From positions 39,217-103,216 of the forward strand of contig NZ_VIGW01000010.1 of the NCBI RefSeq assembly GCF_007858435.1: 64,000 nucleotides of DNA, given 5' to 3'. The stretch comes from Tsukamurella asaccharolytica (GTDB lineage Bacteria > Actinomycetota > Actinomycetes > Mycobacteriales > Mycobacteriaceae). The translations under genes and the position numbers were made by a program. A model generated the notes under the pieces. The model was not told the DNA's origin and did no database searches. It was given only the letters and a program-made list of their open reading frames with translations. This document shows, one piece after another, positions 12,954 to 18,605 of this stretch (the stretch's first letter is position 1; every line of letters starts with the position of its first letter).

Positions 12954-14696
12954 TCAGGTTACTCCGCGCGCGATCGCCGCCGACGCCGGGACCACCTGGC
13001 CGAAGTCCAGTTTCACCAGCTGGTCGGCACGGTCGAAGTACCTGTCGTCATGGGTGATCACCACGACTGTCTTCCCCCGTGTCCGCAGGTCCGGGATGAT
13101 CCGGTCGTAGAAGACGGCGCGGAATCGCGGGTCCTGGTCGGCGGCCCACTCGTCGAACAGGTAGACGGGGCGGTCCTCCAGGAGCGCCGTGAGCAGCGCG
13201 AGCCGCTTGCGCTGCCCCGTCGACAGCGCGAGGGTCGAGAGTTTCCCATCCTGAACGCTGACGGCGTGCGCCAGCTCCAGTTCGTGCAGCAGTCCGCGCA
13301 CCCGGTCGTCCAGGTCGTCCGCGGCGAGACCGAGGTAGTCGTCGAACAGGTGGAAGTCGGAGAACACCGCGGTGGTGTGCTGCCGGAACCACTCCGTGTT
13401 CTGCGGGCCGATCGGCTCGCCGCCGGCGCGGATCTCGCCGATCCGCGGCGCGTACAGCCCGCAGATGAGCTTGGCCAGCGTCGACTTGCCGCTGCCGTTG
13501 CCGCCGACCACGAAGGTCACCTCGCCGGGGCGCAGCGTGAGGTCGACGGGGCCGAGGCGGAAGCCGTGCGGGGCGCCCGGCGGGGGTCCCTGGGGAGGGT
13601 GCGGCGGCGGGCCGCCGGGGCCCCTGTGGCCGCCGGGGCCGCCGGGCGGCGGATGGCCGGGCCCCTGCGCCCCGGGCGGAGGCTCGGGGAGGTACTCGTA
13701 GCCGACGCCCCGCAGTTCGATGGTGCCGTCGCCCACGGGCCGCCCGTCGTAGGGCAGCACCGACTCGTCGCGCGGGGTCTCCAGGGAGAGGTCGAGGCCC
13801 CGGATCTTCGCGAGCGCGACGTCGCCGCGCAGCAGGTCGGGGATGCGGTGCAGGAGGCTCTGCATGGGCATCGACAGGAAGGTCGTGACCAGCACGTAGC
13901 CGATCATCGTCTCCCGTGGCAGCTCCATCGCCCGGGCGAGGACGAACAGGATGAGCACCATCGTGCCCAGCTGCAGCACCTGCCCCAGCGCCTGCCCGCC
14001 GGCGAACCGGCTCCCCGCGGCGACGTGCTTGCGGCGCAGGTCCTCGGCGGTGCCGAGGAGCTTGCGGTCGAGGAAGTCGCCGCGGCGCGCGCGGTGCAGT
14101 TTGAGCTCCTTGACGCCCTGCGTGACCTCCTGGAACGAGCCGATGAGCGCGTCGTCGAGCTCGCGGGCCCGGCGGTAAGTCTCCCGCACCCGCCGCAGCA
14201 CCGTCTCCACGCAGGCGATGCCGATGAGGGTGCCGGCCACGGAGACCGCGAACAGCGGGCCCGAGACCGTCGCGAGGTAGGCCAGTGCGCCGATGATCGT
14301 CGCCAGGTCGATGCACAGCCCCGGGATGCCCGAGACCGCCATCGACAGGGAGCGGACGTCCTCGGTGAGCGTCGCCAGCAGCCGGTGATCGCCGAGCCGC
14401 TCGATGTGCTCGAGCGGCGCCGCCAGCACCCGCTGCGACAGCCGCGCCCGCAGCCGGTAGACGGCCGCCTGCGCGAGGTGCAGCAGGATCAGCTGCGAGG
14501 TCACGCCCGCCACGACCACGACGACGGCGGTCAGCACGAACCGGGTGACGGTGACCGTCGGCATGGGGCCCGGCGCGACCAGGCCGTTGATGAGGGTGAG
14601 CAGGTAGGCGTTCGCGGCACCGGCGATGAGGCCCGCGACCACCGCCGCGGCGATCGCCGCCGGCGAGATCGACAGCAGGAACCTGAAGAGCTTCAC
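12954..14696 (-). CDS. Cyclic-peptide-export-type ABC transporter (membrane and ATPase domains fused)
   Basis: Half-size exporter of the SyrD/PvdE kind, 580 residues. Six membrane helices occupy roughly residues 8-290. The ATPase domain has Walker A GGNGSGKST (398-406), signature LSTGQRKRLAL (491-501) and Walker B VYLFDEWAADQDP (511-523). The signature is LSTGQ rather than LSGGQ, as is common in this subfamily. An unusual Pro/Gly/His-rich insert (about residues 338-378) separates the first ATPase strand from the rest. The GTG start is 7 bases past the stop of the polyketide synthase gene, so the transporter is the natural candidate to export that enzyme's product. Which compound it moves is inference. 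Confidence 0.9.
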   Translation of the reverse strand: MKLFRFLLSISPAAIAAAVVAGLIAGAANAYLLTLINGLVAPGPMPTVTVTRFVLTAVVVVVAGVTSQLILLHLAQAAVYRLRARLSQRVLAAPLEHIERLGDHRLLATLTEDVRSLSMAVSGIPGLCIDLATIIGALAYLATVSGPLFAVSVAGTLIGIACVETVLRRVRETYRRARELDDALIGSFQEVTQGVKELKLHRARRGDFLDRKLLGTAEDLRRKHVAAGSRFAGGQALGQVLQLGTMVLILFVLARAMELPRETMIGYVLVTTFLSMPMQSLLHRIPDLLRGDVALAKIRGLDLSLETPRDESVLPYDGRPVGDGTIELRGVGYEYLPEPPPGAQGPGHPPPGGPGGHRGPGGPPPHPPQGPPPGAPHGFRLGPVDLTLRPGEVTFVVGGNGSGKSTLAKLICGLYAPRIGEIRAGGEPIGPQNTEWFRQHTTAVFSDFHLFDDYLGLAADDLDDRVRGLLHELELAHAVSVQDGKLSTLALSTGQRKRLALLTALLEDRPVYLFDEWAADQDPRFRAVFYDRIIPDLRTRGKTVVVITHDDRYFDRADQLVKLDFGQVVPASAAIARGVT

Positions 14697-14703
14697 GGCG
14701 CGC

Positions 14704-17542: not shown

Positions 17543-17783
17543 TTCTCGTTCCTCCTGAACGCTTCCGAATCGGCCGTTGGGTAGACCGTCCCCGATGACG
17601 CTAATGGATCACTGAAGATGCACTTGCCGCTACCTCCAGTTGTCCGTTTTGTTCCGAAACGGCGCGGAAGAGGGGGTCGACCGCCTCCGGAATTCATGCA
17701 TACTTCATCGTGAAGGGCGGGGCTTCCGCCCTTTCATTCGGCTCCGGGCGATTCCGCCCGGACTGATTCACAGGGGGGAACCC

Positions 17784-18605
17784 ATGAATGTCAAGGCATC
17801 GCGGGCGGCCGTAGCGCTGCTCGCCGCCGGCGCGCTGGTGCTGACCGGCTGCGCTGATAAGAAGTCCGACGACAGCGGCACGACGACCGCGACGGCCGCC
17901 GCTGCGGGCGGCGCGTCCGGCTCACCGACGGCCGCGCCCTCGGTCGACGCGAGTGGACTGCCCACCGTCCAGATCGTGAAGGACGCGGCCCTGGCCACTC
18001 GGGAGACCTACTCGGAGCACCTGACGCTCGCCGTCGACAAGGGGATCCAGGGTCTGCCCGTCACCAGCGTCACGGGCGACATCATCTCCTTCAAGGACAC
18101 CAAGCGCGTTGCCGCACAGGGCGACGCCAACGTCCGGGTGCAGGACAACTACGTCCAGACGAAGTTCGTCGTGATCGACGGGGTCATGTACGCCAACCTG
18201 GGCGGAGCCAAGTACCAGCCGATGGGCAAGACGGGCGAGAAGGGCGTCTACGATCCGGCGATCATCCTGGACCTGGAGAAGGGCCTCGCGAAGATCCTCG
18301 ACTCGGTGCAGAACCCGAAGGTCGACGGCAAGGACACCGCCAACGGGCTCAAGACCGTCAAGGTCACCGGCACCGTCGCCACGCAGGTTCTGGACCCGCT
18401 CCTGCCGCAGATCACCGACATCGCCACCCGCGGCAACGCCGGCACGTCGCTGCCCATCACGCTGTGGATCGTCTTCGACCCGTCGGCGAACCCGCAGCCC
18501 AAGCCGAACGTGACGCGGATGGAGGTCAAGCTGAAGGAACTGCCCATCACGCTGAACCTCACCGACTTCGGCAAGGACGTGAAGATCACCAAGCCCGCCG
18601 GCTGA
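17784..18605 (+). CDS. LppX/LprG-family lipoprotein
   Basis: A 273-residue secreted lipoprotein: signal peptide ending LTGC with acylated Cys23, a Ser/Thr/Ala linker, then a domain of the LppX_LprAFG family whose half-barrel holds acyl chains. LppX and LprG in mycobacteria carry phthiocerol dimycocerosate, triacylglycerol or lipoglycans across the periplasm. The conserved pattern of two half-domains (ITSFKDTKRVAAQGDANV-like strand repeats and ITLWIVFDPSANPQP) is clear. The ATG follows GGGGGGAA. The gene is divergent from the desaturase, polyketide synthase and exporter operon with 241 bases between, which suggests a role in moving that lipid product; this link is inference. Confidence 0.88.
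   Translation: MNVKASRAAVALLAAGALVLTGCADKKSDDSGTTTATAAAAGGASGSPTAAPSVDASGLPTVQIVKDAALATRETYSEHLTLAVDKGIQGLPVTSVTGDIISFKDTKRVAAQGDANVRVQDNYVQTKFVVIDGVMYANLGGAKYQPMGKTGEKGVYDPAIILDLEKGLAKILDSVQNPKVDGKDTANGLKTVKVTGTVATQVLDPLLPQITDIATRGNAGTSLPITLWIVFDPSANPQPKPNVTRMEVKLKELPITLNLTDFGKDVKITKPAG

What the first reader, a model, noticed from the sequence alone, without database searches (positions are those of the whole stretch)
12954..18605. Compact polyketide-lipid locus: cytochrome b5/desaturase, type III PKS, SyrD-type exporter, divergent LppX/LprG-like carrier
Three genes with gaps of 10 and 7 bases combine a self-sufficient oxygenase/desaturase, an intact type III PKS (Cys167, His305, Asn338) and an exporter of the cyclic-peptide class. 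Divergent to them is a lipoprotein of the family that carries PDIM, triacylglycerol or lipoglycans through the mycobacterial periplasm. Together they would make an unsaturated or hydroxylated alkyl-pyrone or resorcinol, move it over the membrane and hand it to the outer layer. I know of no described pathway with this set. The family identities are established; the joint pathway is inference.
Basis: partly seen in the sequence, partly recalled or inferred. Interest (0 to 1): 0.78.

Follow-up and report, generated by a model that had tools for sequence, protein, structure and literature searches.

The report
Polyketide lipid maker with export genes
Four neighbouring genes, kept together in many relatives of the tuberculosis bacterium, look like one unit that makes an unusual fatty polyketide and passes it outward, and they suggest a cargo for LprF, a lipoprotein whose job is unknown.

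Summary
A Tsukamurella-like genome carries a tight run of a cytochrome b5/desaturase (DES), a type III PKS and a SyrD-type ABC exporter, with a divergent LppX/LprAFG lipoprotein (LPP) beside it. The four genes are a conserved unit. In 80 named PKS relatives (best 80 of 93), DES is adjacent in 80 of 80, LPP is upstream in 75 of 76 loci with enough flank, and the exporter is downstream in 61 of 61 non-Mycobacterium loci but 0 of 19 Mycobacterium loci. LPP is LprF-type; DES and PKS correspond to Rv1371 and Pks18 of the described rv1371/2/3 operon (PMC13141999). In Mycobacterium a sulfotransferase follows the PKS instead (18 of 19; the 19th sequence ends there). Most likely an unsaturated or hydroxylated alkylpyrone is made, flipped out by the ABC exporter and carried by the LprF-like lipoprotein to the mycolate layer. 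The unit is well supported; product, order of steps and cargo are inference. Novelty: new variant of a known kind.

The parts
15896..17542 (-). DES: cytochrome b5 domain fused to a membrane fatty-acid desaturase-type diiron domain (548 aa), Rv1371-like
   Evidence: Pfam PF00173 and PF00487. Haem ligands His105 (HPGG) and His128 and His boxes 254/258, 287/291/292, 455/458/459 invariant in 32 aligned sequences and without substitution in 80 relatives, 0 to 2 gaps per position
14704..15885 (-). Type III polyketide synthase (393 aa), Pks18-like
   Evidence: Pfam PF00195 and PF02797; best solved relatives 7cb3 and Pks18 1ted; Cys167, His305, Asn338
12954..14696 (-). SyrD-type ABC exporter half-transporter (580 aa)
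   Evidence: TIGR01194 391.6 bits over cut-off 286.2; Walker A Lys404, signature, Walker B and H-loop His present, no substitution in the relatives aligned there
17784..18605 (+). LPP: LppX/LprAFG lipoprotein of LprF type (273 aa), lipobox Cys23
   Evidence: PF07161 142.3 bits; LprF 4qa8 120.6 bits against LprG 76.2; Cys23 invariant in 20 aligned sequences
17543..17783 (.). Divergent intergenic region with two near-invariant blocks, probably two promoters (inference)
   Evidence: Alignment of 13 genus sequences

Best explanation
The four genes are one make-and-export module for a long-chain alkyl polyketide. Step 1 (shown for the homologue Pks18, inferred here): the PKS extends a long-chain acyl-CoA with malonyl-CoA and releases an alkyl-alpha-pyrone. 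Step 2 (inferred): the cytochrome b5-fed diiron enzyme DES puts a double bond or a hydroxyl into the alkyl chain, on the starter or on the product. Step 3 (inferred): the SyrD-type ABC protein, presumably as a homodimer, moves the product across the inner membrane. Step 4 (inferred): the LprF-type lipoprotein takes the amphiphile into its lipid pocket and delivers it to the mycolate outer layer, as LppX is reported to be needed for PDIM. In the Mycobacterium lineage the exporter was lost and a sulfotransferase gained, so there the lipid is probably sulfated and leaves by another exporter.
For: Conserved adjacency in 80 named loci and in 12 of 14 genus loci with identical flanks, plus one genus locus (L034) with the four genes in another context. 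Outside the module, only four ORF clusters span three or more genus labels. In 151 genomes of the family, DES, PKS and ABC occur together in 17, with few exceptions. Protein distances correlate, r 0.84 to 0.89. The lipoprotein changed strand at least three times on the PKS tree yet stayed adjacent. It is LprF-type, not LprG-type. Sulfotransferase and exporter exclude each other in the loci seen. Precedent: PDIM is a polyketide lipid with an ABC transporter and the lipoprotein LppX needed for its translocation (PMC8427324, passages). Pks18 uses C6-C20 acyl-CoA starters (stated in PMC13141999).
Against: No product is known for this locus or for the Mycobacterium operon. SyrD-type exporters are named for peptides, and this genome has peptide-synthetase condensation domains on other contigs, though none on the window's contig. 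Whether DES desaturates or hydroxylates is open: the model is weak (pLDDT 59.6) and its fold matches are near background. The PKS also occurs alone (G076) and, as a partial match with a stop, with ABC but without DES (G068). One copy in Antrihabitans lacks the lipoprotein (L076). The 2026 authors inferred that the Mycobacterium product is not a structural cell-wall lipid.
Confidence: 0.57

Rival explanations
1. The lipid stays in or near the inner membrane as a structural or redox lipid. The ABC protein only removes excess or intermediates, and the lipoprotein serves other lipids such as phosphatidylinositol glycolipids.
For: The family member LprG binds other glycolipids (PMC8427324, passages). 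The Mycobacterium loci work without the ABC exporter.
Against: The lipoprotein follows this operon and not other lipid genes: 75 of 76 loci. The exporter at this similarity is found only at this locus in 151 genomes, apart from one partial match on another contig of G003, whose locus is cut by a contig end.
Confidence: 0.22
2. The ABC exporter serves a peptide or siderophore made elsewhere in the genome, and is next to the PKS for reasons of regulation.
For: TIGR01194 is a peptide-exporter family. Condensation domains lie on contigs C21, C74, C11 and others of this genome.
Against: None lies on contig C1. In 151 genomes the exporter occurs only with this locus.
Confidence: 0.1
3. Neighbours without a shared function that spread together as a block.
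For: A short co-directional run could spread as a block. T. sp. 8F (L104) and BOG_194 group with Williamsia and apart from the other five Tsukamurella rows on the PKS tree, as transfer might give.
Against: Flanks turn over between genera while the four genes stay. The lipoprotein flips strand yet stays adjacent. Presence and absence largely agree.
Confidence: 0.05

Closest known systems
lprF (Rv1368) - Rv1371 - Rv1372 (Pks18) - Rv1373 locus, including the rv1371/2/3 operon
   Same: Same lipoprotein type, same desaturase family, same PKS type, same order of DES and PKS (PMC13141999, PMC4236100)
   Different: Here a SyrD-type exporter is the third gene instead of the sulfotransferase; the lipoprotein is divergent; no IS6110 between them
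PDIM system: polyketide synthases with DrrABC, MmpL7 and LppX
   Same: Polyketide lipid, ABC transporter and LppX-family lipoprotein together (PMC8427324, passages)
   Different: Type III instead of type I PKS; SyrD-type half-transporter; no MmpL gene among the four; cytochrome b5 desaturase added
srs operon of Streptomyces and the homologous polyketide quinone cluster of M. smegmatis
   Same: Type III PKS clustered with modifying enzymes (PMC5916927, passages)
   Different: No methyltransferase among the four genes; exporter and lipoprotein present
SyrD-type cyclic peptide exporters (TIGR01194)
   Same: Whole-protein score above the curated cut-off
   Different: No condensation domain on the same contig; Gly/Pro-rich insert before the ATPase domain

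Membership tests
Type III polyketide synthase | Chalcone/stilbene synthase domains with Cys-His-Asn triad | tested here: met
Pks18 type | Closest to Pks18 among solved structures | tested here: met
   7cb3 479.3 bits, Pks18 1ted 458.5, next 4b0n 280.8. The organism of 7cb3 was not shown.
Pks18 type | Long substrate tunnel | tested here: inconclusive
   The position that is Cys in 1ted and Phe in 1tee is Ser here, Ser in 61 and Cys in 19 of 80 relatives. That this residue lines the tunnel is recalled.
LppX_LprAFG lipoproteins | PF07161 domain and lipobox | tested here: met
LprF type | LprF scores first; paralogues do not | tested here: met
LprF type | Binds a lipid | not testable with these tools
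   Needs purified protein
SyrD-type exporter (TIGR01194) | Score over curated cut-off and ATPase motifs | tested here: met
SyrD-type exporter (TIGR01194) | Exports a peptide | not testable with these tools
   No condensation domain on the contig, but the substrate is unknown
Cytochrome b5-fused membrane diiron enzyme | Three His boxes and b5 haem ligands | tested here: met
Cytochrome b5-fused membrane diiron enzyme | Fold of a desaturase rather than of a hydroxylase | tested here: inconclusive
rv1371/2/3 operon | DES followed by PKS on one strand | tested here: met
rv1371/2/3 operon | Sulfotransferase as third gene | tested here: not met
   An ABC exporter is in that place; no match to the Mycobacterium sulfotransferase in this genome at E 1e-40

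The most novel reading that the evidence does not exclude
LprF, listed as of unknown function in 2021 (PMC8427324), is the dedicated carrier of a Pks18-type polyketide lipid, and the ancestral pathway had its own SyrD-type exporter. Mycobacteria replaced that exporter by a sulfotransferase, giving an undescribed sulfated polyketide lipid. More broadly, lipoproteins of this family would each be paired with an inner-membrane exporter: LppX with DrrABC/MmpL7, LprG with P55 (recalled), LprF with this ABC protein.
Probability: 0.33. Interest if true: 0.8.

Novelty: new variant of a known kind. Interest (0 to 1): 0.6.

Why it matters
It joins two open questions: what the Pks18 operon of the tuberculosis group makes, and what LprF carries. 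The exporter-bearing form in environmental Gordonia, Williamsia and Tsukamurella would let both be tested outside dangerous pathogens. The exporter-for-sulfotransferase swap predicts how the product should differ in Mycobacterium.

Tried and rejected

Literature: lprF with pks18, 0 papers; Rv1371 with pks18, 2; at least two of Rv1371, Rv1368, Rv1372, 3; type III PKS with Nocardia, Gordonia and Tsukamurella, 0; type III polyketide synthase with Mycobacterium, desaturase and operon, 5; at least two of Tsukamurella, type III polyketide, biosynthetic gene cluster, 653, 15 listed; at least two of pks18, ABC transporter, Nocardia, 257, 12 listed. In these listings I saw no report that joins LprF or a SyrD-type exporter with this PKS. 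Only an open-licence library was searched, and most listed papers were not opened.

Weak points in the counts: the 80 loci are the best of 93 and were found with a Tsukamurella-based PKS profile; the 13 dropped rows were not examined. Genus labels were set by hand from the titles. ORF clusters used a simple caller that missed genes (PKS called in 39 of 80 loci). Locus L099 has its lipoprotein only at 40 to 60 bits. In L033/L040 (T. sp. PLM1) the genes come in broken pieces. The fall of Rv1371 and Rv1372 in a pknF mutant (PMC3908365) is confounded by IS6110 transposases in the same list.

Full report
What is there. The window lies in a 4.12-Mb genome (G000, 81 contigs). On the minus strand lie DES (17542-15896), PKS (15885-14704) and ABC (14696-12954), with gaps of 10 and 7 bases. 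LPP runs the other way at 17784-18605. The PKS has Cys167, His305 and Asn338; its best solved relatives are 7cb3 and Pks18. DES carries the HPGG haem motif, a second His and three His boxes, conserved in its relatives. No reductase domain was matched, so 'self-sufficient' goes too far. The ABC protein passes the TIGR01194 cut-off.

The lipoprotein. It scores LprF 120.6 bits and LprG 76.2. The genome has two other members of the family, which score LprG first, 123.6 and 126.8 bits. One of them has a transporter-like reading frame right after it (L124), as in the lprG-P55 pair (recalled; not tested by a domain search). In M. gastri the lipoprotein next to DES-PKS scores LprF at 324.7 bits. The lipoprotein here is therefore of LprF type.

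Conservation in the genus. PKS was found in 15 of 16 genus genomes, G000 included. In the 16th (G003), DES ends 64 bases before a contig end, so the missing PKS is not a real absence. Of 14 relatives' loci fetched, 12 have the four genes with the same flanks. L034 has the four genes without these flanks. L035 is a 4.65-kb contig with ABC, PKS and part of DES.

Conservation beyond the genus. A scan of one genome per species gave 93 relatives, of which the best 80 were kept. DES is adjacent to PKS in 80 of 80. The exporter follows in 61 of 61 non-Mycobacterium loci (41 Nocardia, 8 Gordonia, 6 Tsukamurella, 2 Williamsia, 4 others) and in 0 of 19 Mycobacterium loci. LPP lies upstream in 75 of 76 loci with more than 3.5 kb upstream (thresholds 40 to 100 bits). 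Clustering of neighbouring ORFs gave eight clusters that span three or more genus labels: the four genes, an ORF antisense to the PKS position, a short-chain dehydrogenase family, an FHA-ABC exporter, and one unidentified cluster in 4 loci. Protein distances of the four genes correlate at r 0.84 to 0.89 (57 loci for all four, 76 without ABC).

Presence and absence. In a sample of 151 genomes of the GTDB family, DES occurs in 19, PKS in 21, of which 20 at 55% identity or more, and ABC in 19; all three occur together in 17. Exceptions: G003 (contig end), G111 (no ABC), G068 (partial PKS match with one stop, ABC, no DES), G076 (PKS alone), G065 (distant PKS only). Of 20 DES places, 19 are directly beside a PKS. 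In a phylum sample DES was found in 2 of 246 genomes, both of the same family. As far as sampled, the module is confined to this family of mycolate makers (that they make mycolates is recalled).

Tree. On a PKS tree of the 80 loci the 19 Mycobacterium rows form one clade (100/97). It is sister to L095, a MAG with the exporter (100/99), and lies among exporter-bearing Nocardia (92/85, not starred). Loss of the exporter in the Mycobacterium lineage is the simplest reading. The orientation of the lipoprotein needs at least three changes, yet it stays adjacent.

The swap. Mycobacterium loci carry a PF00685 sulfotransferase downstream of the PKS in 18 of 19; the 19th held sequence ends there. In three of the 18 (L099, L100, L114) it lies about 1 kb further on. 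In the 151-genome sample it occurs only in G111, in two tandem copies right after the PKS, and G111 is the one genome with DES and PKS but no ABC. No locus with both exporter and sulfotransferase was seen; L095 is cut inside the ABC gene, so it cannot tell.

Link to known work. The rv1371/2/3 genes are co-transcribed. A BCG knockout and its complemented strains differed in lipid features, SDS survival and macrophage behaviour, but no product was identified, and the authors write that Rv1371 has no activity assay (PMC13141999; outline and parts 1 to 3 of 5 read). They inferred that the product is not a structural cell-wall lipid and is likely a negatively charged lipid, which would suit a sulfated product. 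mmar_2190 is given as an orthologue of the alkylpyrone-making pks18 (PMC5916927, passages). The order Rv1367c, Rv1368 (lipoprotein), IS6110, Rv1371 appears in PMC4236100 (passages); PMC3908365 lists Rv1370c as an IS6110 transposase (passages). That Rv1368 is lprF is recalled, and agrees. LprF is described as of unknown function in PMC8427324 (passages). No paper joining LprF or a SyrD-type exporter with this PKS was seen in the searches named in Tried and rejected.

Expression. The 241-bp region between DES and LPP has two near-invariant blocks in 13 genus sequences, which would fit two divergent promoters. This is inference.

Verdict. It is an exporter-bearing variant of a known but poorly understood locus, and it proposes a cargo for LprF.

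Noticed in passing
L050 5119-7464, L057 4991-7345, L081 5100-7445, L063 (two copies, one on each side), L066, L088; also L118: An FHA-ABC exporter (two FHA domains, ABC_tran, ABC2_membrane; like Rv1747, recalled) lies near the locus in 6 of 11 named Gordonia, Williamsia and 'Kitasatospora' loci, and in L118. In M. tuberculosis a mutant of PknF, the kinase of Rv1747, had Rv1371 and Rv1372 down 2.4- and 2.2-fold, with IS6110 transposases also down (PMC3908365).
   Followed up: partly
window 17543-17783: The intergenic region between DES and the lipoprotein holds two near-invariant blocks, around CGCTAATGGATC and ATGCATACT, in 13 genus sequences.
   Followed up: partly
window about 13563-13688 (ABC residues about 338-378): A Gly/Pro-rich insert sits just before the ATPase domain of the exporter; matches of several relatives break at this place.
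   Followed up: no
window 17288-17542 (DES residues 1-85): The N-terminal 85 residues of DES are a low-complexity Pro/Gly/Arg-rich stretch with repeated PGPRDL, predicted disordered.
   Followed up: no
L050; L092: A record titled Kitasatospora arboriphila carries a PKS almost identical to that of Williamsia muralis (branch 0.012), and one titled Acidobacteriaceae has the contig length of a genome placed in the window's genus. Both titles may be wrong.
   Followed up: no
L119 and L120 (G070): One genome, probably Antrihabitans, has two copies of DES-PKS-ABC, only one with the lipoprotein.
   Followed up: partly
G111:C1:1287576-1289461 (L121): Two sulfotransferase genes in tandem directly after the PKS in a Mycobacterium-type locus.
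   Followed up: no
L124 (G000:C18): An LprG-like lipoprotein with a transporter-like reading frame right after it, resembling the lprG-P55 pair (recalled), is present elsewhere in the genome.
   Followed up: no
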